From: a virus
Reading direction: 5' to 3' (one strand)
DNA length: 23,555 bases
Virus record (IMG/VR): IMGVR_UViG_3300035438_001194
Coordinates: 1 to 23,555 of that record
Shown: positions 916 through 23,555 of the stretch, in pieces
How positions within the stretch are numbered: position 1 is the stretch's first letter
Layout of the letters: each line of letters opens with the position of its first letter
Made by a program: the position numbers and the translations under genes
Notes under the pieces: model-generated
What the model was told of the DNA's origin: nothing
Databases searched by the model: none
The model's input: only the letters and a program-made list of their open reading frames with translations

Positions 916-1137
916 TTAGCTCAGTGATGGTGGGAGTTTATCGCCTGACGCGAGGTAACGGGCAAGCTGGGCGACTGCAAATGTGATTGCAATTCCAAGC
1001 GGCGCGATTGTGTCTACAATCTTAGGCAGATCCGCTTGGATCACGCCGACGGCTGTGATAGCACCCACAATAGCAGCACGAATGATTGTTGAACGTGCTT
1101 GGTCGTAGTTGACCTGACCCAAAATATCCTTGATCAC
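916..1137 (-). CDS. Holin-like two-helix membrane protein
   Basis: 73 residues beginning (M)IKDILGQVNYDQ. There are two hydrophobic stretches, about residues 20-35 (IIRAAIVGAITAVGVI) and 44-62 (IAPLGIAITFAVAQLARYL), with a short polar C-terminus. Size and topology fit a class II holin, but many phage small membrane proteins look alike. The start codon is GTG at 1137, overlapping the TGA of the nuclease gene (GTGA) and preceded by an excellent AAAGGTGA Shine-Dalgarno 7 bases away. The stop is TAA. Confidence 0.6.
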   Translation of the reverse strand: MIKDILGQVNYDQARSTIIRAAIVGAITAVGVIQADLPKIVDTIAPLGIAITFAVAQLARYLASGDKLPPSLS

Positions 1138-1604
1138 TTTTTTTCACCTTTCGTTTGCGGTTTCGGTCTCTTGCGATACTCCCAAGGTGCAATCACATTG
1201 GGATCTGACCACAAGCCCCGGCTGGCTGTCTTGGCCTGTGTCTGAGCGGATTGTAATTGGGTATCGCGTTTGGCGTATTGTTCGTACCAATGGGCCATGC
1301 CAGTTTCGACCATCGTCAGACTGGCATCTTTGCCAGCGATTTCAACTCGTGCCAGCAGTCGCCCGTAACGGTCTTTTTTGCCCGGCTTGATGGTGACGGT
1401 TTGGCCGAACACCAGTCCTGATAGGGATTGTTTACTGGCCTGTCCGAATGGTTGTTTCAATTCAGGCGCGTCAATGCCGTCCAGCCTGATTTTAATTGTT
1501 TCGTCGGTTCGCACGGTGATCGTGTCGCCATCGTAAACGGCGATTACTTTGGCTTCAAAGGGTGGGGCGAACGTGAGCAGGATAGTTGCAATTGCAATAA
1601 TCAT
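1134..1604 (-). CDS. Secreted staphylococcal-type (thermo)nuclease, SNase family
   Basis: 156 residues starting MIIAIATILLTFAPPFEA, a signal peptide, so the enzyme should act outside the cytoplasm. The SNase core is intact. DGDT (D27) and IRLDGIDAPE supply the equivalents of S. aureus nuclease D21, R35, D40 and E43 (here R40, D45, E48), and DRYGR supplies the second arginine (R82). The family cleaves DNA and RNA using Ca2+. The start at 1604 makes an ATGA overlap with the upstream gene and has AAAGGGG before it; the open frame continues upstream but lacks a better start. Possible roles are degrading extracellular or competing phage DNA, or nucleotide scavenging. Confidence 0.88.
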   Translation of the reverse strand: MIIAIATILLTFAPPFEAKVIAVYDGDTITVRTDETIKIRLDGIDAPELKQPFGQASKQSLSGLVFGQTVTIKPGKKDRYGRLLARVEIAGKDASLTMVETGMAHWYEQYAKRDTQLQSAQTQAKTASRGLWSDPNVIAPWEYRKRPKPQTKGEKK

Positions 1605-1807
1605 TTCAGCCCCTTTGGAACCGTGAAGCAGTGGCCCAGGACGATTCCCACTCCGAGAGCAAAGCTGAGGCTGTGCTGATTGACTTCCCAGATTGCCTCG
1701 CTCCACGTTGTGCCGCCTGACTGCCATTTGTAAAGGTCAACCAACAGCAGCACAATAGCTGCGGTGATTAACGCGATGAAATTTGTGGCAGCAGTCCTGA
1801 ATTTCAT
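1601..1807 (-). CDS. Small two-helix membrane protein (second holin-like candidate)
   Basis: 68 residues. Hydrophobic segment 1 is about residues 8-24 (NFIALITAAIVLLLVDLY). Segment 2 is about residues 46-60 (SLSFALGVGIVLGHCF), with a short basic tail. The start at 1807 overlaps the previous stop as ATGA and has AAGGTG upstream; the open frame extends further but without support. Together with the protein at 916-1137 it gives two holin-like candidates flanking the nuclease. No family recognised. Confidence 0.6.
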   Translation of the reverse strand: MKFRTAATNFIALITAAIVLLLVDLYKWQSGGTTWSEAIWEVNQHSLSFALGVGIVLGHCFTVPKGLK

Positions 1808-2322
1808 TTCACGCACCTTATGAGGATCGCCAAAGCTGACAGGATGCCGAGCAACCATGTACGAGGCTCTGGAACGGTGTTTCCAGTGATCTGAAGTGAC
1901 AAGCCGCTTGCGTTCTGCGCCCACGCAATTGGATTATCTGCCGAAATACCGAGGTAATAAGTTGTGTGCGAGACCATCGGGATATCGAGGTGGAAAAATG
2001 GTAGGTTGGAGAACCCGATCAGGCTCACTTGGTCGGATGGAGTGTATTCCAATCGCATCTCGGTTATCCACCAGTCCACAGGCTTTTGCAGCACGGGATC
2101 GTAAAATGACAGGTACAACGAACCAGTAAATCCGGCTGGCTTATAAATATTGAGCCTGTAATCCCACAGTTCAGTGGAATCTTTAGAATTAAATGCCTGA
2201 TATATCCACTGGTCTTTGCCCGTGTAGACAAGCCCCGTGATCGGCTCGGCAAGGTTATCAAATAATATCTCCGAGCCTTGTATCGGCAGTCCAAGAAATA
2301 GCAGGAGCAGTAACTTTTTCAT
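1804..2322 (-). CDS. PEP-CTERM secreted protein (choice-of-anchor type)
   Basis: 172 residues. It has an N-terminal signal peptide (MKKLLLLLFLGLPIQGSE), then a beta-rich domain beginning LFDNLAEPITG and containing QWIYQAFNS. This resembles the 'choice-of-anchor R' domain found in PEP-CTERM proteins. The C-terminus is a textbook PEP-CTERM signal: VPEP, a hydrophobic helix, then a basic end RCVK. In bacteria such proteins are processed by an exosortase and sent to the cell surface. The start at 2322 overlaps the previous stop as ATGA and has GGGAC before it. Its neighbours are fibre and lysis genes, so the gene is clearly inside the phage late operon. It looks like a cargo gene acting on the lysogen or infected cell surface; no exosortase is in the window. 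Confidence 0.82.
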   Translation of the reverse strand: MKKLLLLLFLGLPIQGSEILFDNLAEPITGLVYTGKDQWIYQAFNSKDSTELWDYRLNIYKPAGFTGSLYLSFYDPVLQKPVDWWITEMRLEYTPSDQVSLIGFSNLPFFHLDIPMVSHTTYYLGISADNPIAWAQNASGLSLQITGNTVPEPRTWLLGILSALAILIRCVK

Positions 2323-2888
2323 AGTGTCCCGTTTGCATTTGAAGGTGGTGCCCACAACACGGGCATTTCGGCGGCGAATTGGGCGGGTGTTGGGACTGCC
2401 CGTAAACCCGCCAACACGTCTGATTCGATCTTGTACGCAACTTCGTAGCATCTCTGCCTGAACGATTTAGCGGCAACCCCGTCAGCGGCCCATTGCAGGA
2501 TAGGACTGTCAAACCATGTGATGGCGGATGAAATAGAATCGAAATCGCGTGGTGCAACCTGGGCATCCATGTGCTGGTCCAAGAGTTGCTTGAGGATCGC
2601 CTTTTGTGACCTCAAATAGCCCATTTGCTCATCAGGTGTGAGCGTGACCACAGCCCATGTCTCGGTGACCTTCGAGCCTACCAGTTTCAACGCCTGAAGC
2701 AGTCGTGTTGTGGCTGGATTGATTGTCGGCTTAACCGATGGCGTGAACGGGTAGAAGCCGTATTGCGCGAGGATGTCAGCGTCCAGCGTGTGGAAGTTGC
2801 TGACATTGGCGAATGTTTTTGGCAACACTTGAGGTGGGCTGATTTGACCGTTTTTGACTTGGCAGAATTGCATTACAGGATGCTCCAT
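2319..2888 (-). CDS. Phage tail-fibre-associated / assembly-like protein
   Basis: 189 residues. The N-terminal part (MQFCQVKNGQ) and the central pattern TWAVVTLTPDEQMG resemble small proteins encoded after fibre genes (XkdW or DUF4376-like and tail-fibre assembly proteins). These often carry a 'query-variable, W.V..LT.EE' segment. The C-terminal half is helical with many aromatics (ITWFDSPILQWAADG) and ends in a Pro-rich tail. It lies directly after the LamG-like gene with a 16 nt overlap and stops in an ATGA junction. The family is assigned only by pattern memory, so function is tentative. Confidence 0.5.
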   Translation of the reverse strand: MEHPVMQFCQVKNGQISPPQVLPKTFANVSNFHTLDADILAQYGFYPFTPSVKPTINPATTRLLQALKLVGSKVTETWAVVTLTPDEQMGYLRSQKAILKQLLDQHMDAQVAPRDFDSISSAITWFDSPILQWAADGVAAKSFRQRCYEVAYKIESDVLAGLRAVPTPAQFAAEMPVLWAPPSNANGTL

Positions 2889-3634
2889 TTGGATTGCAGG
2901 TAAGTCCCGATAGCTGTTAGATCAGTAGAGCCTAAAACCGAAGGATATATGATCAATTCACCCATCGTAAATCTGCCATATTGAGACGCTGGGCCAGCGC
3001 CAACAATTAGATTGGTGAACGACGTTATTGCACCTTGAACGCCCGTTAATGCAACTCCAGACACATAGGGTACAAGCCCTGTACTTGTGCCGCTGTTTGT
3101 CTGATATAAACGCAGAAACGTGTTGTAGATGGATGTGGTCGGAGAATAGGTTAAAGCGCCGCCATTCCACGAGCCGCTTGCCGTGGAAACCTGACCTCCA
3201 TAGTTGCCTAAATAACTCCCGAGCCAGAGCCTTGTTGTTGATGTGCTAAGATCCGTTGCGTTTAGGATTCGGTCAACCTGCGTATTGCGAGTCATCTTGA
3301 GTGCAATAACCACTGTGTAAGGCGTCGAAAACGGTATGGCAACCGACACGTACGAACTTGTTCCGTTAAAATCCGCTAAGCCGAGGCTGTTCTGGCCGTT
3401 TGCGGGAGACAACCACGTTGGCCTGTTGCCAGATGTCGCCTGAATTGCGTGCCTGCTATTTCCAGACAGGTCGTTCCACTGATAAATACTCTGGCCTGAA
3501 GTTGTCACTGGCGTTGTTCCAGCGTCCGTAAACAGAGTGTTTTGCTGCGATGCGTCCAGCCAGAGGGCGGAGCCTGAGACGGGTAAACCGCCCGTCGCCG
3601 TCTTTGTGGCATTCCTGACAATATTTGAGAGCAT
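2873..3634 (-). CDS. LamG/concanavalin-like lectin domain protein (tail fibre or adhesin)
   Basis: 253 residues. After about 20 residues the pattern of a concanavalin-like/LamG sandwich appears: ALWLDASQ, then YQWNDLSGNSRHA, RPTWLSP, LADFNGTSSYVSV, and near the end GELIIYPSVLG followed by YLQSKWSI. These are usual landmarks of such domains in secreted and phage adhesin proteins, which bind surface glycans. The start at 3634 overlaps the previous stop as TAATG; the open frame extends about 46 codons upstream, but that part overlaps a recognisable gene in another frame. The composition is Ser/Thr/Gly-rich, like the neighbouring fibre genes. Likely a receptor-binding or virion decoration protein. 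Confidence 0.72.
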   Translation of the reverse strand: MLSNIVRNATKTATGGLPVSGSALWLDASQQNTLFTDAGTTPVTTSGQSIYQWNDLSGNSRHAIQATSGNRPTWLSPANGQNSLGLADFNGTSSYVSVAIPFSTPYTVVIALKMTRNTQVDRILNATDLSTSTTRLWLGSYLGNYGGQVSTASGSWNGGALTYSPTTSIYNTFLRLYQTNSGTSTGLVPYVSGVALTGVQGAITSFTNLIVGAGPASQYGRFTMGELIIYPSVLGSTDLTAIGTYLQSKWSIL

Positions 3635-4188
3635 TAGTAGTTTTGACCTCCCACGTAACCCTGCCAAGTCGTTCCACCATCGCTCGAAAAGAAGGCAAAT
3701 GTGTCGATCTTGCCAGATGTCGATGTCAGCGTTGGAGCCGTGCCACCCGCCCACTTGATAGCCGCTGGCCAAGTCACTGCCCGTGCTGTTCCGTCAGCGG
3801 TCAGGATCAAGGTGAATGAGCCACCGGAACCGCTTGCAGGAGGGTTGATGATGGTCAGTGTGGTGATCGCTGCGTTGAGCGAGACGGTAAAGATATTCGA
3901 CGTTTCAAGGTTCAATGTCAGCACGCCAGATGAGATTGTTGGGCTGGAGACAGATTCGGAATAGTCCCGAAGTTTAGCCCGAATCAGTTCGGTGTCCAGC
4001 AGATTCTGCGGCCCCGTCAGGTCGCTGTAGGCTCTGGCGGCTGCGTATCCGAGTGCCGTCCATGCCGTCCCGTTGCCAAGTTTGAACTTGCCGGTGTCAG
4101 TCTCATAGCCGATTTCACCGGATGCCAGCGTGGTGTTGGCGGATGTCCATGCTGCGGCGGTGTCGCGTCTGACTTGTATTAGTGCCAT
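3634..4188 (-). CDS. Tail-fibre-like structural protein
   Basis: 184 residues. The N-terminus carries the common phage fibre motif RRDTAAAWTSANTTLASGEI followed by a short stretch ending KLGNGTAWTAL (residues about 7-48), found in fibre and tropism-determinant N-terminal domains. The rest is a Thr/Ser/Gly-rich beta domain (TWPAAIKWAGGTAPTLTS, then TFAFFSSDGGTTWQGYV), typical of a distal fibre knob. It overlaps its neighbours by a single base on both sides (TAATG). It is probably part of the receptor-binding apparatus together with the adjacent genes. Confidence 0.72.
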   Translation of the reverse strand: MALIQVRRDTAAAWTSANTTLASGEIGYETDTGKFKLGNGTAWTALGYAAARAYSDLTGPQNLLDTELIRAKLRDYSESVSSPTISSGVLTLNLETSNIFTVSLNAAITTLTIINPPASGSGGSFTLILTADGTARAVTWPAAIKWAGGTAPTLTSTSGKIDTFAFFSSDGGTTWQGYVGGQNY

Positions 4189-5813: not shown

Positions 5814-7121
5814 TTATTCAACCTCCATTTCCGCGTCAGGTGTCTCGGTGTCTGCAGGTCCCTCAGGCTCCACGGCCTCAGCCTCGGGAACCTCCTCCAG
5901 CTCACCAAGGCCCAAAGTGGCTCTCGCTTCATTGATCGTAAAGATTCCTGCCCCAACGCCAGCCGTGGCGATGTCCATCAGTGCTTTTCTATCAACGGAC
6001 AATTCCTCAATTTGCGAGGTGTCAAACCGCACACACAGTTCTGGGTTAGGCTGCGAAGTCACGCCGTCGCAGGCAATGGGCAGTGTTTGCACGAGTCGCG
6101 TGAGTTCACCGGCCACCAGGTCGAGGAACGGAATCACAGCATCCCGCCACGACGCCTTGTTGGCCTCGACGAGGTTGCTGTAAGTCTTGCCCGTGTCAGG
6201 CTGTTTCAAACTCATAGGTGCCCATCCTAACACACCACAGATGCGGGCGGTGGCTAAATCGGCCATTTCGCTGACGGATAGATCTTTTGGCGAAAATCCG
6301 GGGCTTTTGATATCCATTTCGCTGGTTCCAACAAACGGCCTGCCCACTGCTTTACCGCTCACAGCCCGTGCCAGGTCGGACTGGACTTGCGACAGTTGCA
6401 GGTCAGATAGATTGCCGAGCGTTTTGAGGCTGACAATCAGCGATGGCACGCCGGATCGACTCAGTACGGTGGTCTCGTATTGACCGATGATCTTCACTAG
6501 CGCCATTTCAGCAACAACAGAATCGAGCACCGAAACGCCACGACTCTGAGCATAAGATGACCGCCCTTGACGGTACGCCAGCATCAATTCAGCTGGAACG
6601 GAATAGTTGTAAGCACGCCCCCAATCACTTCCCATCACTGGATATTCGAGCACTTCGTTAATAGATTCGCCCATGATCGGCCGCATGATCCAAGGCGATG
6701 GTATCGGCATCAGCTCAGTGACGGCATTGCCAGCGGTGTTGGTGATCACTTGCACATAGGCGTTGCCGTTATCGCATAGGCTGGCGTACAGGTGCTCCAG
6801 CACCGTCGCATCTGATTCACCCGGTGATGGACGCTGCCAGAGGTGTTGCAAAGGGTGATCGACCGGGATAAACCCGCCGTCCTCGTCCCAATAGCCCACT
6901 TGCATGATGGCTTTGGTGGAGTTGCGTCGCATCGCCTGAATGGCTGCCTGAACCACGCTCACTTGTGTGTAAGGGCGTGCGAGGGTCATGTAGTCGTTAG
7001 ATAAGCCAGTCATCATATCTACAGACCATGATGAGGCGGCAATATCAGCGGTGTTGGCAGTAACGCCAGCCCTCACGGACTTGGTGAACCGGTCTCGGAT
7101 GTTTTCAAACAGTGTTGGCAT
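5814..7121 (-). CDS. Phage portal protein, HK97 family
   Basis: About 435 residues, the usual size. Features of the family include the N-terminal helix with VSVVQAAIQAMRRNS and the DHPLQHLWQRPSP loop. The segment LYASLCDNGNAYVQV is followed by ELMPIPSPW, and SRGVSVLDSVVAEMALVKII precedes the stem region. The C-terminus is acidic and low-complexity (EEVPEAEAVEPEGPADTE). The portal forms the dodecameric DNA gate at one capsid vertex and docks the terminase. I chose the ATG at 7121 (MPTLFENIRDRF), 5 nt after the terminase stop; an ATG at 7139 overlapping the terminase gene is equally open and neither has a clear Shine-Dalgarno. The usual protease and capsid genes do not follow. Confidence 0.9.
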   Translation of the reverse strand: MPTLFENIRDRFTKSVRAGVTANTADIAASSWSVDMMTGLSNDYMTLARPYTQVSVVQAAIQAMRRNSTKAIMQVGYWDEDGGFIPVDHPLQHLWQRPSPGESDATVLEHLYASLCDNGNAYVQVITNTAGNAVTELMPIPSPWIMRPIMGESINEVLEYPVMGSDWGRAYNYSVPAELMLAYRQGRSSYAQSRGVSVLDSVVAEMALVKIIGQYETTVLSRSGVPSLIVSLKTLGNLSDLQLSQVQSDLARAVSGKAVGRPFVGTSEMDIKSPGFSPKDLSVSEMADLATARICGVLGWAPMSLKQPDTGKTYSNLVEANKASWRDAVIPFLDLVAGELTRLVQTLPIACDGVTSQPNPELCVRFDTSQIEELSVDRKALMDIATAGVGAGIFTINEARATLGLGELEEVPEAEAVEPEGPADTETPDAEMEVE

Positions 7122-7126
7122 AGTGG

Positions 7127-8479
7127 TCAAGACACCCATCGGAACGGTTGTACTGAGGAGAGATAGCTGAACGCATCGGCAGCGGAATCAACCTGGTCAT
7201 CATGTTTTCCGGTTGGAAATGAGCACAATTCGTCAATGAAATCACGGTTCCATTCGCCCTTTTCCAGCTCAATCGAACCGGATTCAAAAGCAGCGGCCAT
7301 CGGCATCGCCCGCACTTCTTTGGAGCCAGTTGGCCGTTTGCTGATGACTCCATAACCGATCAAGTTGCGGGTATCATGCTGGACCTGATCGACACCCGCC
7401 GAGCCGGGGTCTTGTGCCAGGTGGACGATCGTTTCGCGGCCATCAGTCTCAGCGATCTGGCGTTGGATTGTGCGACGGGTAGCAGGCGACCATTGCCCGC
7501 GTGAAACGTGCTTGATTCGGTAGATGTCGCCGGTCCTGCACATCCACACACCGGCAGTGTAATCACCACCACCGACCGTTGCGGCTGTGTCCCATGCTCG
7601 GCATGAGTTGGAGTTGAGTGGTATCGGTGATGGATCGACAATCTTGAACCATTCCGGCCTGAAGAACCCGCCATCACGTGGTGTTGGTGTCTGTTGATAC
7701 AGAGCGGAAAAGGCGTAGGAACCGACGGTCTTTTTGATCCGGTCGAAGTCTTCCACGCTGTACCGTTCTGGCCAGAGTGCCTCGCCGGGATGACGTCCGA
7801 TCAGGTCATCTTCCTCAGCAATCGCAGGCAGGCTGACCACATCCCATTGCTCGCCACCGTCATTGGCCTGTTCCAGTAATTGGCCAGCCAAGTCGAGGCT
7901 GTGCCAGCGGGTCATGATCAGGATCACCGCAGCGCCGGGATGCAGTCGCGTGTACAGGTCGTTCTGGTACCAATCCATCACCCGCGTGCGATAGGTGGGC
8001 GATTCGGCCTCGGCACGTGACTTAGTTGGGTCATCAATAATGACCAGGTCGGCACCATATCCGGTAACACCTGATCCGACACCTACCGCATAAAGCCCAC
8101 CACCGTGTTCACTTGACCACTGGTTTTGTTTGTTTTGGTCGTCGGAAAACTCGAAACCGAATTCCTTGGCAATCCGGCGTGTTTGTCGCGAGAAAGTGCA
8201 TGCCAGCGAGTGATTGTAGGCCCCGATGATCACCCGTAAACTCTGATCCAGCAATAGCCTGTAAGCAGCATAATGGATCGTTGCCAGCTCGCTCTTGCCG
8301 TGCCTGGGCGGGAGGAACAGCATCAACCGTTTGCAGTCACCGGTCGTCACCCTGTCCAGCGCCCGGCGGCATTCCGCTAAGTGTTCTGGCGACCACTGGT
8401 GTGCTGGTGTCGCCGCTTGCAGGAAGCGGTTTAGGCCCCTTGGGATTAACTGTTTTGCGTGGTGGTGTGTCGCACTCAT
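7127..8479 (-). CDS. Terminase large subunit (packaging ATPase-nuclease)
   Basis: 450 residues. The ATPase domain has Walker A LPPRHGKSE (about residues 56-64), Walker B LVIIDDP (145-151) and the coupling motif IMTRWHS. The C-terminal RNase H-like nuclease domain has AWDTAATVGGGDYTA, QDPGSAG and the closing acidic motif KHDDQVDSAADAF. The enzyme cuts concatemeric phage DNA and pumps it through the portal. The gene overlaps the small-subunit gene by 143 nt in another frame; recognisable terminase sequence begins near residue 29, so most of that overlap is genuinely double-coding. No Shine-Dalgarno precedes 8479, suggesting coupling to the small subunit. Confidence 0.95.
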   Translation of the reverse strand: MSATHHHAKQLIPRGLNRFLQAATPAHQWSPEHLAECRRALDRVTTGDCKRLMLFLPPRHGKSELATIHYAAYRLLLDQSLRVIIGAYNHSLACTFSRQTRRIAKEFGFEFSDDQNKQNQWSSEHGGGLYAVGVGSGVTGYGADLVIIDDPTKSRAEAESPTYRTRVMDWYQNDLYTRLHPGAAVILIMTRWHSLDLAGQLLEQANDGGEQWDVVSLPAIAEEDDLIGRHPGEALWPERYSVEDFDRIKKTVGSYAFSALYQQTPTPRDGGFFRPEWFKIVDPSPIPLNSNSCRAWDTAATVGGGDYTAGVWMCRTGDIYRIKHVSRGQWSPATRRTIQRQIAETDGRETIVHLAQDPGSAGVDQVQHDTRNLIGYGVISKRPTGSKEVRAMPMAAAFESGSIELEKGEWNRDFIDELCSFPTGKHDDQVDSAADAFSYLSSVQPFRWVS

Positions 8480-8756: not shown

Positions 8757-9641
8757 CTACACTTTCACTGGTTTTAGTGGAGTGGATTTTCTCCATTTCT
8801 CATCAATAATCATTGGATAGGCAGCATGAACGTTTATCTTGTGATGTATTCTAAAATGAGGGCTTCGGCGGTCACCAATGACGCCAATTTTCACGCAAGA
8901 TGGAGAGTGACATACGGTCGTGTGAGCCTTAACGTAAGTTCCGTACTTTTTGTACAGATCAGAGATTCCGCCGCCGCTGCTTTGCGTGGCCGACTGATTT
9001 AACTGCATAGGCATGATTGTTAGAAAGAGGTGGCCCTGCCTTCCAAGAGTCACATAAGTGTTTACATCCTCATTGAATCGCCCCCTAAACTGGAACCTTC
9101 TTTCGGTTGAGCAGAAAAATGAGTTCATACACTTTCTTCTGGTTCTTACCAGTTCGCGGTCTTTGTTTCCGCCGAGATAGTCACCACCTTGAGCAATAGC
9201 AATAGATAAACACGGTGTTTTGATGTAAAAATTTAATAGCTCTGAAATAGACCTTTCAAACGTTAAGTTTGCTATTTGATGGGTTGTGTCGCGAATATGA
9301 AAACGATACATAAACGATGTGTAATCATCGTCAAGTTGCAAGAAATACTTATACCCTAGATTTTCAGCTATGTCAAAACACGCATTTCTTGCGTACGTGA
9401 TCGTTCTTCTATCTTTGAAATTGTCACCCTCGTCGAATTTATGCGAGTATTCTTCCTTGCTGAACTGAATAACCTTTTCTCCATATAGGCTCTTGTATCT
9501 ATCTGCGGTTTTGTCTTCATCGTCGATTACTATATAGGTTTTTCCATTCCAATTACACCTTTCGAGAGTGCGAAGCGTTTTGACGTTATTAGGACGACCA
9601 TGAGAAAGTATGAATATACAGAACTTGTTTGCTTCAGACAT
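8757..9641 (-). CDS. TET-associated-type glycosyltransferase (DNA hypermodification candidate)
   Basis: 294 residues. The N-terminal GT-A-like half reads FILSHGRPNNVKTLRTLERC, YIVIDDEDKTADRYKSLYG, DEGDNFKDRRT, ITYARNACFDIAENLGYKYF, then LQLDDDYTSF with a DXD-type metal site. I recognise this as the family named TAGT (TET-associated glycosyltransferase) in phages, thought to put sugars on modified DNA bases. Start ATG at 9641 has GGAG nine bases upstream; an upstream in-frame TTG at 9656 lacks such support. The gene overlaps the ParB-domain gene by 8 nt, and both ends of the pair fit the known ParB-TAGT pairing. Base use is far more AT-rich than the phage average, and it is the only gene here ending in TAG (followed at once by TGA). 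Function is inferred from family memory; no TET or base-modifying partner is in the window. Confidence 0.66.
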   Translation of the reverse strand: MSEANKFCIFILSHGRPNNVKTLRTLERCNWNGKTYIVIDDEDKTADRYKSLYGEKVIQFSKEEYSHKFDEGDNFKDRRTITYARNACFDIAENLGYKYFLQLDDDYTSFMYRFHIRDTTHQIANLTFERSISELLNFYIKTPCLSIAIAQGGDYLGGNKDRELVRTRRKCMNSFFCSTERRFQFRGRFNEDVNTYVTLGRQGHLFLTIMPMQLNQSATQSSGGGISDLYKKYGTYVKAHTTVCHSPSCVKIGVIGDRRSPHFRIHHKINVHAAYPMIIDEKWRKSTPLKPVKV

Positions 9642-18428: not shown

Positions 18429-20924
18429 TTAGAAGTCGGATCGGATTCCGCCTGCCTGGACGCTCAAATTCCATCCGTAATCCGTAAAGATCAGACCCCT
18501 CAGGCACCTCTTGCGAGTCTCGGTTCGGTTCCCGAGTCTGGCGACTCTCAACTTTGGATACAGGTCTTTGATCTGTTTTGAGATGGTCTGAATACAGGCG
18601 GGGTGCCGTCCCGTCTGCCCACACCACGCCTTGTAAGTGTCGTAGATCTTGCCGATTTCGAGCGTCTCAGATTCATCACCGGTGACCTCAATGCAGTCCG
18701 CGACGAATGCCTGGGCGGGTGATCCAATTTCTTTTGCTTCCTCGATAGCGTTTGAAGTGGAATCGTTTTCAGGGAATTTGCCCGATTGGAGCAACTTGGA
18801 ATACCCTTCAACCGCCCACGCTAGAATGCCGGTCATCTCCGATGCAATCCTACTGTGAAGTGTCTGGTCTTCCCTCCCAACGTGGCTCTCTGTGAATTGT
18901 AGGACCAGCAGGCGTGTTGGGATGGCCGCAGCTGCATCTGGGAGCCGTGGCATTTCGTTTGATGCCATGATGATCCTCGTGGGTAGTTTTCCTGACCAGT
19001 CAGACTGGTACTTCCTTGCGATCCTGATTTCGTCCTCTCCTGAGATAGATAAGATGCGTTCAATCGCGTCTGAAACGTTGTCACGCGATCCAAACCGCAC
19101 GTCAGGCATGATTGCCACAGGTACGCCGATAAGTTTCTCAAGGCCAAACTCCCGAGCCAAGTCGCCAATCCCTAGTGATGCCACGGATTCAGGGCCAATC
19201 ATGTTCCCCATCGTTCTCGTGATCGTACCCTTTCCTGATCGCGGCGGACCGATCATGGCGAGTATCTTTTGGAAGCTGGTATTCGATGTCAGACAGAGGC
19301 CAAAAAACATCTGGAGTAACTCAATTGACTGCGGATCATTGGGGAAACAGGATTCCAGGAACGCTTTCCAGGCTGGACAATCTGCCCCCTCACCAGTCCA
19401 TTCCACGTTAGATCTGACTTTTGAAAACCACCTGTTGCTGAGGTCCTGTGTCTGTTTTGTCCTGACGTTAAGTATGCAGTTCCTGAGTGCGATAGTCTCA
19501 ACCGGATCCCAGTCGCCTTGCGTCCGGTCAATCCAATAAGGCATTTTTGGGAGCTTGCGATCCGGTATTGTACTGATAGATGTGAACGCCTGATAAGCCG
19601 ACTGGATCACTCCAGATGTGACCGGCTTTTTCTTGTACTTCGCTTTCTCTTCGGGGTCATCCAGCCTGGCATAACACTGCTCCGCATTCATCAGGAACCA
19701 GTGGTCAATATACCCTCCGATTGTCGCTCTAAGTTCATCTGGCCTGATCTCCTGATATTTCCCCGCTCGCCATTGCCATGATGTCCCCTGCCAAGTCACA
19801 AACCGGTTCTGGTGTTCACTCGCTATGAATTCTGTTGCGGTTAAGAAAGGGTCGTAATAAGGGATGAGTTGATTCTTGCACGCTGAAGCGTCGCCACCGA
19901 AATCCTCTTTCTGGTCCTCACTTTTCACCAATAATGACTTCTGGTTTTCCGCTGGCAGTTCGATCGTTGTCCCACGCTTCGACTCGTATTTCTTTGGCGC
20001 AACGGGCTGTGCTGTGCCTCTTGTCCAAGCCCATTCCATCGTCTTCTGAGCACATCTTAAGGATCGGCAATTCCCATTCGACATCAGTGCCGATTCCACC
20101 GACTGGAATATCTCTGATTTCTGATACTCAAGCCCCATCCCTGCTGCATACCCGCCCGCCATCCTGACGTTGGCTCGCAAGGTGAAGTGCAGTTCACCGG
20201 ACGCAGATGCTGCGATCTTGTCAATTAGTTTATTGGTCCGGTTAGCGAACCACCCAGATTCCCAAGTGTCTGACGCCGCTGGAACTTCACACCTAACGGT
20301 ATTCTCCGAAGTCGCCTTGTACTCCCCTTTGATCTCCATCAGCCAATGTGCTGCAACGTCCGGAAGGTCCGCTGGTTCCACGTCCCTATCAATATGTTTT
20401 CCCTCTGACGGGGCGCACGCCACCTGTGCCTGTCCGGTCTCTGAGCCTACGAAAATTTCGACGTGCCCACCGCCAGGCATGTTGATTTTTCGCCTCGGCT
20501 GATCGCCGTACTTCTTCAGGAATTCAGGCGTCGCCTTGTACCATAAGTGCAGCCCACCAGCACCTCTGACAACATGTGTCTCGTGTACTTCCCCTCCGAA
20601 CGCGATTTCGATAAAATCGTCTCGGATACTTTCGATTTTGCTGAAATCCTTACCAGGTGGATCAAGATCAAACACGACGTACCCAAACGGCTGACAGCCA
20701 AGCCCCGCGTCTTTTGGGTGATTAAGAATGGTATCTTGTAATATCTTTCGCCTGTCTGGGATGGAATGTTTTCCCCATCCAACCCCGACAGGTTTCTTTA
20801 CTTTGCCGTGGTCGTCCCTGTAAAGTGCCAGGGGCCTTAGTCCGAGCAAATCCATCGCGTCAAAAGCCGCCAAAAGATCAGATCTTTTGACGGCCTGAAA
20901 ATAGGCTTCCCAGTGAGGGTTCAT
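18429..20924 (-). CDS. Primase-polymerase / SF3 (D5-type) helicase fusion
   Basis: 831 residues, typical length. The N-terminal prim-pol domain has the catalytic VVFDLDPPG (about residue 80-88) and the GGLHLWYKA motif (about 120-128). The C-terminal helicase has a D5_N-like lead-in (DPQSIELLQMFFGLCLTSN) and Walker A IGPPRSGKGT (about 557-566). Walker B VAIMPDV and the sensor segment IIMASNEMPRLPDAAAAIPT follow, then a C-terminal winged-helix-like end. The protein should prime and unwind at the phage origin just downstream of its gene. Start ATG at 20924 overlaps the previous stop as ATGA; an upstream in-frame ATG at 20945 is less likely. Confidence 0.9.
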   Translation of the reverse strand: MNPHWEAYFQAVKRSDLLAAFDAMDLLGLRPLALYRDDHGKVKKPVGVGWGKHSIPDRRKILQDTILNHPKDAGLGCQPFGYVVFDLDPPGKDFSKIESIRDDFIEIAFGGEVHETHVVRGAGGLHLWYKATPEFLKKYGDQPRRKINMPGGGHVEIFVGSETGQAQVACAPSEGKHIDRDVEPADLPDVAAHWLMEIKGEYKATSENTVRCEVPAASDTWESGWFANRTNKLIDKIAASASGELHFTLRANVRMAGGYAAGMGLEYQKSEIFQSVESALMSNGNCRSLRCAQKTMEWAWTRGTAQPVAPKKYESKRGTTIELPAENQKSLLVKSEDQKEDFGGDASACKNQLIPYYDPFLTATEFIASEHQNRFVTWQGTSWQWRAGKYQEIRPDELRATIGGYIDHWFLMNAEQCYARLDDPEEKAKYKKKPVTSGVIQSAYQAFTSISTIPDRKLPKMPYWIDRTQGDWDPVETIALRNCILNVRTKQTQDLSNRWFSKVRSNVEWTGEGADCPAWKAFLESCFPNDPQSIELLQMFFGLCLTSNTSFQKILAMIGPPRSGKGTITRTMGNMIGPESVASLGIGDLAREFGLEKLIGVPVAIMPDVRFGSRDNVSDAIERILSISGEDEIRIARKYQSDWSGKLPTRIIMASNEMPRLPDAAAAIPTRLLVLQFTESHVGREDQTLHSRIASEMTGILAWAVEGYSKLLQSGKFPENDSTSNAIEEAKEIGSPAQAFVADCIEVTGDESETLEIGKIYDTYKAWCGQTGRHPACIQTISKQIKDLYPKLRVARLGNRTETRKRCLRGLIFTDYGWNLSVQAGGIRSDF

Positions 20925-21640
20925 GATGCGGTGCTGCCGATCCATTTGTAAGTCTTGATTTTGTGCCCCTCTTTAGACACCACCCGCAGGCGTGCTGACT
21001 TCCTGTGGTAGTCTTGGAAATCAGCCTCAAGAGCTTTATCCACCAAGAAAGTTCCGTTGTCGCGGTACACTTCGATCTCGTTAAGATCCAAGCCGCGACA
21101 GGAGATGAATTCCGCGAAAATGTCTCGGAATTCAGGCGGCTCGTGATCGACATCCGCCTGACCTTTTTTGCTCGGGTCAAAAGATTTACCTGTGATCGGG
21201 CAGTCCATTGGTTGCCCACCAAGAACTCTGACCATAGTGGTGAGTTTCTCGTAAACCTGTTTTTTCACTGCCGACCTGAACGCATCCCGTACGAGCGACA
21301 CGCGAGTCTTAATCTTCCAGCAGTCGATAGGTTGCCAGTTCACTAAGTCGCCGTCAGGCATGATCCAGAAAAAAGTAAGGCTCTGGTAATCACATACCCT
21401 ATTAGGCAGTACAGTTAAGTCCATGACCATTTTACTGCTGTCTGGCTTGTCTTCACTATCGAACTTCTTTGGATAGAAAAGGTCGTAAAGCGAGGCCATG
21501 AACTCAAAATCGCTATCACCTCGGGTGATCGACTCGCCATAAGACAGTCTCGATTTGATCCGAGCGACTTCGGCAGCCAATGTCGTGGCGTTGTAATCCT
21601 TGCCACAAACCACAAACTGCCGACCACGGAGTTTAGCCAT
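20921..21640 (-). CDS. DUF3223/HNH-like phage protein
   Basis: 239 residues. The N-terminal part (TTLAAEVARIKSRLSYGESI; DFEFMASLYDLFYP) fits the DUF3223/DCL-like domain. The C-terminal part reads DCPITGKSFDPSKKGQADVD followed by HEPPEFRDIFAEFI, and later FQDYHRKSARLRVVSKEG. That is the HNH-like arrangement (Cys, DVDH.PP.F, then YH...A.LR) found in such proteins. A nuclease acting in replication or against host DNA is plausible. The start overlaps the regulator's stop by 8 nt, and the gene feeds directly into the primase gene. Family assignment is from pattern memory. Confidence 0.65.
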   Translation of the reverse strand: MAKLRGRQFVVCGKDYNATTLAAEVARIKSRLSYGESITRGDSDFEFMASLYDLFYPKKFDSEDKPDSSKMVMDLTVLPNRVCDYQSLTFFWIMPDGDLVNWQPIDCWKIKTRVSLVRDAFRSAVKKQVYEKLTTMVRVLGGQPMDCPITGKSFDPSKKGQADVDHEPPEFRDIFAEFISCRGLDLNEIEVYRDNGTFLVDKALEADFQDYHRKSARLRVVSKEGHKIKTYKWIGSTAS

Positions 21641-22248: not shown

Positions 22249-22336
22249 CTAACCCGTCCTCCCCCTTTAAAATCGCAATCCGTTGGTGACACATGGGTTA
22301 CACTTTGAGAAGATCTGAATCGACGACCTTGCAGAA

Positions 22337-22377
22337 CTCCGGAGCAAAAGGCCGCAAGTTCGAATCTTGCCGGGTGT
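22337..22377 (+). other. att core: exact 3' half of a tRNA-Arg(CCG)
   Basis: In tRNA numbering: anticodon loop CTCCGGA (32-38, anticodon CCG), GCAAA (39-43), five-base variable region AGGCC, T-arm GCAAG TTCGAAT CTTGC (49-65), acceptor strand CGGGTGT (66-72). Every spacing is canonical, but the bases before the loop (CAGAA) cannot pair with GCAAA and no ACACCCG 5' strand exists upstream. Only the 3' half is therefore present. Tyrosine integrases use such halves as attP/att cores, and an integrase gene follows 105 bases later. The rest of 22249-22482 has no gene; AT-rich TTAAG-containing sequence at 22384-22430 may hold integrase arm sites. Confidence 0.75.
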
Positions 22378-22482
22378 ATTGCGGTAAGTCTTTAGGATTA
22401 AGGCTTTTAAGACAAGACGTTAAGTGTTCGACAATTCCGGAATACTTAGACAACAATGTTGAGAATTTTCACCGGCGGCGAC

Positions 22483-23555
22483 ATGGCACGCCCACCTAAC
22501 CCTATACCCAAGTACACGTTACATAGTTCTGGTCGCGCCAGAATCTATTTTAACAACGTGTATAAGTATCTGCCCGGGGCGTTCAACTCGCCCGAATCGC
22601 GGCAGGCGTTTTATGAAATGTGCGAAATCATCCACGCAACCGGTGACTGGCCCGTTGAGGTCGTGCCCGAAAAGCCACTCACGGTGATGGAACTGGGAAT
22701 CAGGTATCTCGCCTTTTGTGTCACCTACTACGGCCAAAAAAAGAACGGTCGTACCGAAGCGGTGAACCTGCGCTATGCGGTGGATTCGCTGACTGATCTA
22801 TATGGAAGTCGGCTCGCTGGCGAGTTCGGTCCACCACAACTTAAGGCGGTTCGTAAGTCGCTCATCAAAAAAGGTCACGTGCGGAGATCAGTCAATAAGA
22901 GAGCCACCCAGATAATCGCTTGCTTCAAATGGGCAGTCGAGGAAGGACTGGTTGAACCGGACGTGTGGCAGCGGCTGTCCGCCGTCAAACCAATTGCACC
23001 TGGGCGAGAGGGTGCTATCGACAATCCAGCGGTCGAACCGGTGACTTCCAGTCAGTATGAACTCGCCCTGCCCTACCTTCCGGCCGGTGTCAAGATTGCG
23101 ATTCAGGTCCAGCGTCTGACCGGCATGAGGTCCAAGGAACTGCTGTCGATGTGCCCGCAGGATTGCGATATGTCCCGTGAGCACTGGATCTATCGGCTTG
23201 AAAAGCACAAGACGGTAGAACACACTGGCGTTGCTTTTGTGCTGATCCCAGCGCCGGCGGTTGAACTACTTCAGGCCTGTATGCCCAAGACATTTTGTGA
23301 CAGGTGGTTCCCTTGGTCTGTCGGTCATCAACAAAAAAGTGTCGCGCGTGCGTGCCTGTCCGCAGGTGTACCACATTGGTATCCACACCAGTTACGTCAC
23401 AACTTGGCGACCGAGATTAACGAAAAACTAAATATTGAGGCGGCTCAAAAGGTGCTCCGACACACCGACCCACGCATGACGCGAAGGTACTCTAAAGAGA
23501 CTGTGGAAGGGCTTTTAAGCGTTGCCGATCAACTCTACCCCGATGTTAATTTAGG
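22483..23555 (+). CDS. int: Tyrosine recombinase / phage integrase (runs off right edge)
   Basis: About 357 codons are visible with no stop before the window ends. Start MARPPNPIPKYTLHSSGRAR; an in-frame ATG nine codons earlier (22456) is an alternative. The N-terminal part resembles integrases frequent in Planctomycetes ('PxYxxHxxSGxAxV' then '..SPESR..Y'). Catalytic residues: Arg in QRLTGMRSKELL (about residue 216), Lys in the EKHKT turn, HQLRH (about 302-306), the His in VLRHTDP and nucleophile Tyr in RRYSKE (about 335). All are intact, so the enzyme should be active. It catalyses integration and excision at the tRNA-derived core beside it. Confidence 0.93.
   Translation, partial: MARPPNPIPKYTLHSSGRARIYFNNVYKYLPGAFNSPESRQAFYEMCEIIHATGDWPVEVVPEKPLTVMELGIRYLAFCVTYYGQKKNGRTEAVNLRYAVDSLTDLYGSRLAGEFGPPQLKAVRKSLIKKGHVRRSVNKRATQIIACFKWAVEEGLVEPDVWQRLSAVKPIAPGREGAIDNPAVEPVTSSQYELALPYLPAGVKIAIQVQRLTGMRSKELLSMCPQDCDMSREHWIYRLEKHKTVEHTGVAFVLIPAPAVELLQACMPKTFCDRWFPWSVGHQQKSVARACLSAGVPHWYPHQLRHNLATEINEKLNIEAAQKVLRHTDPRMTRRYSKETVEGLLSVADQLYPDVNL

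What the first reader, a model, noticed from the sequence alone, without database searches (positions are those of the whole stretch)
1804..2322. Phage late operon encodes a PEP-CTERM (exosortase-sorted) surface protein
The protein has a signal peptide, a choice-of-anchor-like beta domain, and a complete VPEP-helix-RCVK tail. It is translationally coupled inside a block of fibre and lysis genes. PEP-CTERM proteins are normally chromosomal and need a host exosortase. A phage copy would use host sorting machinery to place a phage protein on the cell surface, for example to mask a receptor, exclude other phages, or change biofilm properties during lysogeny.
Basis: partly seen in the sequence, partly recalled or inferred. 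Interest (0 to 1): 0.75.

Follow-up and report, generated by a model that had tools for sequence, protein, structure and literature searches.

The report
Phage-encoded exosortase-type (PEP-CTERM-like) surface protein
A temperate bacterial virus carries, between its tail-fibre and membrane/nuclease genes, a small exported protein ending in the tag that bacteria use to sort their own proteins to the cell surface, and similar tags turn up in many unrelated phages, which suggests that phages repeatedly borrow this host sorting system.

Summary
Window 1804-2322(-) encodes a 172-aa protein: signal peptide, Cys-free beta-rich domain, then VPEPRTW-hydrophobic-RCVK. It overlaps both neighbouring genes by ATGA. 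The window copy is below curated PEP-CTERM cut-offs (PF07589 9.6 of 20.7 bits; relatives up to 19.4). The anatomy is under selection, though: 12 close relatives and one homologue only 44% identical all keep Pro-Glu-Pro plus a C-terminal helix, and dN/dS is about 0.1. The gene is accessory: 13/13 phages with one version of the upstream gene have it, while 11/11 sister phages with a 42%-identical version join the flanking genes directly. The fibre-tip type does not predict its presence.

It is not a curiosity of one phage: one motif scan of IMG/VR found 43 tail-bearing proteins in 23 families, several next to terminase or portal genes. None of 16 phage records tested encodes an exosortase, and I found no publication describing phage PEP-CTERM proteins.

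Best reading: a late-operon/lysogeny cargo protein exported and processed by a host exosortase. The host and its exosortase could not be identified, and the purpose (receptor masking, superinfection exclusion, matrix change) is untested. The "choice-of-anchor" assignment is not supported by models.

The parts
1804..2322 (-). PEP-CTERM-like exported protein gene, 172 aa
2275..2322 (-). signal peptide (residues 1-16), predicted cleavage after Gly16
   Evidence: sequence; hydropathy; conserved in all homologues
1879..2274 (-). exported domain, residues 17-148: no Cys, 21% Ser+Thr+Asn, beta-rich in a medium-confidence model of the 44% homologue (pLDDT 67)
   Evidence: no significant fold or family match
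1807..1875 (-). C-terminal sorting-type tail VPEPRTWLLGILSALAILIRCVK
2319..2322 (-). ATGA overlap with upstream gene (translational coupling)
1804..1807 (-). ATGA overlap with downstream small membrane-protein gene; AAGGTG ribosome-binding-like site at 1814-1819 lies inside the RCVK codons
2319..2888 (-). 189-aa protein downstream of the fibre genes; its version (>=82% vs ~42%) predicts presence of the PEP-CTERM-like gene
1601..1807 (-). 68-aa small membrane protein; directly abuts the 2319-2888 homologue in sister phages that lack the PEP-CTERM-like gene
1134..1604 (-). thermonuclease (SNase) with its own hydrophobic signal-like N-terminus
   Evidence: PF00565 E 6e-24
3634..4188 (-). fibre-like protein with major tropism determinant N-terminal domain
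   Evidence: PF18454 E 2e-13
2873..3634 (-). fibre-tip/virion structural protein
   Evidence: phrog_10356 E 1.5e-11
5814..7139 (-). portal protein
7127..8479 (-). terminase large subunit
   Evidence: phrog_38 E 2e-101
22483..23555 (+). tyrosine integrase, runs off the window end (temperate phage)
   Evidence: PF00589 E 1.3e-14

Best explanation
The gene is an accessory gene of a temperate tailed phage that encodes a host-exosortase cargo. Step 1 (inferred from gene order and overlaps): it is co-translated with the fibre-side gene upstream and the small membrane protein downstream. Step 2 (strongly indicated by sequence): the signal peptide exports it and the C-terminal helix holds it in the inner membrane with PEP at the periplasmic face. 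Step 3 (inferred from PEP-CTERM biology, not shown): a host exosortase recognises PEP, removes the helix-basic tail and passes the beta-rich domain to the outer surface or extracellular matrix. Step 4 (speculative): the displayed domain benefits the phage or lysogen by changing the surface, most simply by limiting adsorption or entry of competing phages, or by altering the matrix around an infected or lysogenic cell.
For: Tripartite tail plus signal peptide. PEP invariant and helix kept in all 13 homologous contigs, down to 44% identity, although the sequence and length of the helix and basic end change. dN/dS 0.10 over the gene and 0.15 in the tail. The exported domain has the composition described for PEP-CTERM proteins (no Cys; Ser+Thr+Asn 21%; 4.5% Lys+Arg; against PMC1569441). 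PEP-CTERM models pick the right segment, close to cut-off in relatives. The C-terminal 23 residues model as one helix and the middle as beta strands. No phage-borne exosortase in 16 records. Independent phages carry PEP-CTERM tails over the Pfam cut-off or of canonical sequence beside terminase or portal genes: L103 next to TerL; L135 between TerL and portal; L105 after a portal-like gene; L125 near a portal.
Against: The window copy and its closest relatives stay below curated cut-offs, and the 44% homologue gives no Pfam hit. The basic end is weak (RCVK; GRFI in L010/L011). Host unknown: the genome scan with the terminase gave only matches of 41% identity or less, so no exosortase could be shown. 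The same fibre-tip types occur with and without the gene, which argues against receptor-specific masking. No expression or localisation data.
Confidence: 0.68

Rival explanations
1. [quoted passage not shown]
For: Signal sequence plus C-terminal helix, beta-rich periplasmic domain, and position beside small membrane proteins downstream of the fibre genes.
Against: No lipobox Cys anywhere before the tail, which a u-spanin needs. Sister phages keep the flanking genes but lack this gene altogether. PEP is invariant. The spanin hits in tblastn are chance level (E 4).
Confidence: 0.1
2. A plain C-terminally anchored periplasmic protein of the phage: the PEP is structural and no exosortase is involved.
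For: Sub-threshold model scores, weak basic end, Pfam silence for the 44% homologue.
Against: PEP kept over 56% divergence while the rest of the tail changes. Composition and architecture fit PEP-CTERM. Phages in general carry clear PEP-CTERM proteins.
Confidence: 0.17
3. Host gene picked up by transduction and drifting without a role for the phage.
For: PEP-CTERM proteins are normally host cargo; the gene is absent from sister phages.
Against: dN/dS about 0.1; precise ATGA couplings on both sides; retention on different phage backbones (portal 24-98% identical).
Confidence: 0.05

Closest known systems
PEP-CTERM sorting domain / exosortase (EpsH) system (PF07589, TIGR02595; Haft et al. 2006, PMC1569441)
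   Same: Signal peptide, PEP motif, hydrophobic helix, basic end, Cys-poor Ser/Thr/Asn-rich domain without other homologues, no transmembrane segment in between.
   Different: Carried by a phage in a single copy, not beside EPS genes; window copy below curated cut-offs; weak basic cluster; no exosortase in the same record.
Lysogenic-conversion and superinfection-exclusion membrane or surface proteins of temperate phages (from general knowledge)
   Same: Accessory gene in a temperate phage, exported, present or absent between sister phages.
   Different: Would use exosortase sorting, which I found described for none of them; exclusion not tested.
Phage-borne PEP-CTERM proteins on IMG/VR contigs (L101/L105/L141 group; L103; L112/L155; L135; L139; L149/L150)
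   Same: Signal peptide plus PEP-CTERM tail in phage gene neighbourhoods, several over the Pfam cut-off.
   Different: Unrelated exported domains and different slots (terminase, portal, other modules); likely different hosts.
Unimolecular spanins (e.g. T1 gp11; from general knowledge)
   Same: Exported N-terminus and C-terminal transmembrane helix, phage lysis-region location.
   Different: No lipobox Cys here; gene is dispensable among sister phages; PEP motif present.

Membership tests
PEP-CTERM protein | Near-invariant Pro-Glu-Pro close to the C-terminus | tested here: met
   Invariant in the window and 13 homologous contigs
PEP-CTERM protein | Hydrophobic transmembrane helix directly after PEP | tested here: met
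   Kyte-Doolittle 2.6-2.75 over 13 residues; helix 157-179 in the model
PEP-CTERM protein | Cluster of basic residues at the very end | tested here: inconclusive
   RCVK in most, IAKAKK in L012, KVKR in L188, but only GRFI in L010/L011
PEP-CTERM protein | N-terminal signal peptide and no other transmembrane segment | tested here: met
   Sequence and hydropathy; SignalP itself not available
PEP-CTERM protein | Curated model score (PF07589 20.7 bits; TIGR02595 16 bits) | tested here: not met
   Window 9.6 and 8.1 bits; best relatives 15.8 (protein) and 19.4 (record); L004/L008 13.6 of 16 for TIGR02595
PEP-CTERM protein | Exosortase in the same cell | not testable with these tools
   Host not identified; phage records have none
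Choice-of-anchor domain protein | Match to an NCBIfam or Pfam choice-of-anchor model | tested here: not met
   No such hit up to E 10 in Pfam or NCBIfam
Unimolecular spanin | Lipobox with acylated Cys at the signal-peptide cleavage site | tested here: not met
   No Cys in residues 1-148
Phage accessory (moron) gene | Present or absent at one locus between otherwise similar phages | tested here: met
   13 with, 11 without at the same slot; flanking genes abut directly when it is absent

The most novel reading that the evidence does not exclude
Phages of many outer-membrane-bearing bacteria have independently recruited the host exosortase pathway, encoding their own PEP-CTERM cargo in virion or late modules to remodel the surface of infected or lysogenic cells, for example as superinfection exclusion: an undescribed class of phage surface-conversion proteins.
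Probability: 0.35. Interest if true: 0.82.

Novelty: new variant of a known kind. Interest (0 to 1): 0.6.

Why it matters
Exosortase sorting is known as a bacterial matter tied to exopolysaccharide, flocs and biofilms. If phages supply their own cargo, they gain a ready route to place proteins on the surface of hosts whose surfaces are hard to study. That would make testable predictions: exosortase-dependent display, PEP-dependent cleavage, and altered adsorption of related phages. It also gives a first handle on dozens of unannotated small phage genes and on the function of PEP-CTERM proteins.

Tried and rejected
PHROGs, PADLOC, Pfam, NCBIfam and PDB sequence searches gave no family for the exported domain. 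Cultured phages (INPHARED, tblastn) hold no relative of it or of four other viral PEP-CTERM proteins tested.

The first AlphaFold model (9 near-identical rows) was useless (pLDDT 44). Adding the 44% homologue raised it to 67, but Foldseek gave no significant match in PDB or BFVD (best E 0.04 and 0.009), so no fold is claimed.

Host search failed: the terminase profile against genomes gave only matches of 41% identity or less in four unrelated phyla; the integrases against plasmids gave only weak generic matches; relatives of one such genome were uninformative. My own impression that the integrases look planctomycetal is memory only and was not confirmed, so it is not used.

I first thought the gene travelled with a fibre (receptor) type. 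Rejected: the same fibre-tip domain types occur with and without it, and L188 has a sister-type fibre and a chimeric upstream gene yet keeps the PEP-CTERM-like gene. No direct promoter evidence; the consensus scans were at chance level.

Full report
OBSERVATION. The window is an IMG/VR virus record of 23,555 bases. The ORF at 2322->1804 (minus) encodes 172 aa: MKKLLLLLFLGLPIQG-SEILFD...GLSLQITGNT-VPEPRTWLLGILSALAILIRCVK. The start overlaps the stop of gene 2319-2888 (ATGA), the stop overlaps the start of gene 1601-1807 (ATGA), and that gene in turn overlaps the SNase gene 1134-1604. Upstream in the same direction lie the terminase, portal and fibre genes. A tyrosine integrase at 22483-23555 runs off the window end, so the phage is very probably temperate.

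IS THE TAIL REAL? The curated models place the tail correctly but below cut-off (PF07589 9.6 of 20.7 bits; TIGR02595 8.1 of 16). Twelve close contigs exist. All keep VPEP[RSQ]T[WY], a hydrophobic stretch and mostly a basic end, although the end itself changes: RCVK, GRFI, IAKAKK. Relatives score better: PEPST variant 15.8 bits, E 0.015; L012 E 0.12, and E 0.0038 to PEPxxWA-CTERM. In searches of single records the E-values are 5e-5 to 6e-3. A scan with the upstream gene found a 13th contig (L188/L189) whose protein is only 44% identical but ends TPEPQTW-hydrophobic-AKVKR, although Pfam does not call it. Pro-Glu-Pro is invariant over the family. dN/dS is 0.10 for the gene and 0.15 for codons 149-166. 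In 1118 distinct predicted proteins of these phages no other protein has PEP before a hydrophobic C-tail. The domain between the two hydrophobic ends has no Cys, 21% Ser+Thr+Asn and 4.5% Lys+Arg, which resembles the composition that Haft et al. 2006 report for PEP-CTERM proteins (PMC1569441). One nuance: the codons of IRCVK contain the AAGGTG ribosome-binding-like site of the next gene, so conservation of RCVK is not independent evidence.

WHAT IT IS NOT. No choice-of-anchor or other domain model matches. The better AlphaFold model (pLDDT 67, pTM 0.57, built on the 44% homologue) shows about nine strands and a 23-residue C-terminal helix, but Foldseek finds nothing significant. It lacks the lipobox Cys of a unimolecular spanin.

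ACCESSORY STATUS. Sixty-two terminase-related loci were fetched. Twelve contigs with the window's version of gene 2319 (>=84% identical) have the gene directly downstream; eleven sister contigs with a 42%-identical version lack it (Fisher p 7e-7, not corrected for shared ancestry). In sisters the 2319 homologue abuts the small membrane protein directly. L188 raises the count to 13/13. A third group (L013, L035, L036) has another ~145-aa protein in the slot and no such gene. L009, L010 and L011 carry the gene on a different terminase/portal backbone (portal about 24-25% identical), so the module moves between backbones. The gene tracks the body of gene 2319, not the fibre tip: the same tip-domain types occur with and without it, and L188 has a sister-type fibre and N-terminus of 2319.

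BEYOND THIS PHAGE. One stringent DNA pattern for VPEP[S/T-like]TxAL in IMG/VR hit 58 stretches. In 43 the motif is at the end of an ORF and followed by a hydrophobic run; these fall into 23 families by their exported domains, the largest with 16 contigs. Seven of nine examined exceed the Pfam cut-off and the other two are just under it. Several are in unmistakable phage context: beside TerL (L103, phrog_15 E 1e-108), between TerL and portal (L135, E 2e-24 and 6e-72), after a portal-like gene (L105), near a portal (L125). Others may be host flanks and were not all checked. No record tested encodes an exosortase. Literature searches found no paper on phage-encoded PEP-CTERM proteins, within an open-access library only.

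MECHANISM. Shown: exported architecture, conserved tail, operon coupling, accessory distribution, purifying selection. Inferred: inner-membrane intermediate with PEP at the periplasmic face; exosortase cleavage. Speculative: surface display that limits competing phages or changes the matrix. The secreted nuclease and small membrane proteins in the same coupled block fit an exported accessory cassette, but nothing links them functionally.

VERDICT. The interpretation as exosortase cargo is probable but not proven, and the purpose is open. By strict model score the window protein should be called PEP-CTERM-like. The larger finding is the recurrence of PEP-CTERM tails in phages.

Noticed in passing
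window 22290-22390; L078-L087 5811-5911: A tRNA 3'-half-like element upstream of the integrase: the T-stem differs among phages with full compensation (4 of 5 pairs changed on both sides, 100% paired in 11 sequences) between near-invariant flanks. It looks like an attP core that swaps the T-arm of the host tRNA.
   Followed up: partly
window 8757-9641: TET-associated glycosyltransferase (PF20691, E 6e-34), suggesting modified phage DNA bases.
   Followed up: no
window 1134-1604: Thermonuclease with a hydrophobic signal-like N-terminus in the same coupled block; possibly an exported nuclease. Its slot neighbours vary between relatives.
   Followed up: no
window 20921-21640: Weak but clear match to DUF3223/HamC models of PADLOC (E 1e-9).
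   Followed up: no
L068 7346-8349: Terminase gene interrupted by about 1 kb near residues 144-146 of the query, intron- or insertion-like.
   Followed up: no
L089 (Isosphaera pallida plasmid pISOP01), 31147-31911 of the record: A bacterial plasmid encodes an exosortase over cut-off (TIGR02602, E 1e-33).
   Followed up: no
L149 4693-5847: In a viral contig the PEP-CTERM gene is followed at once by a 384-aa protein with a signal-like N-terminus (no Pfam hit) that reads like an outer-membrane barrel: a possible cargo/partner pair.
   Followed up: no
L078-L087 integrase 3' ends (about 7070-7095): The integrase reading frame ends in a run of glycine codons of varying length in relatives.
   Followed up: no
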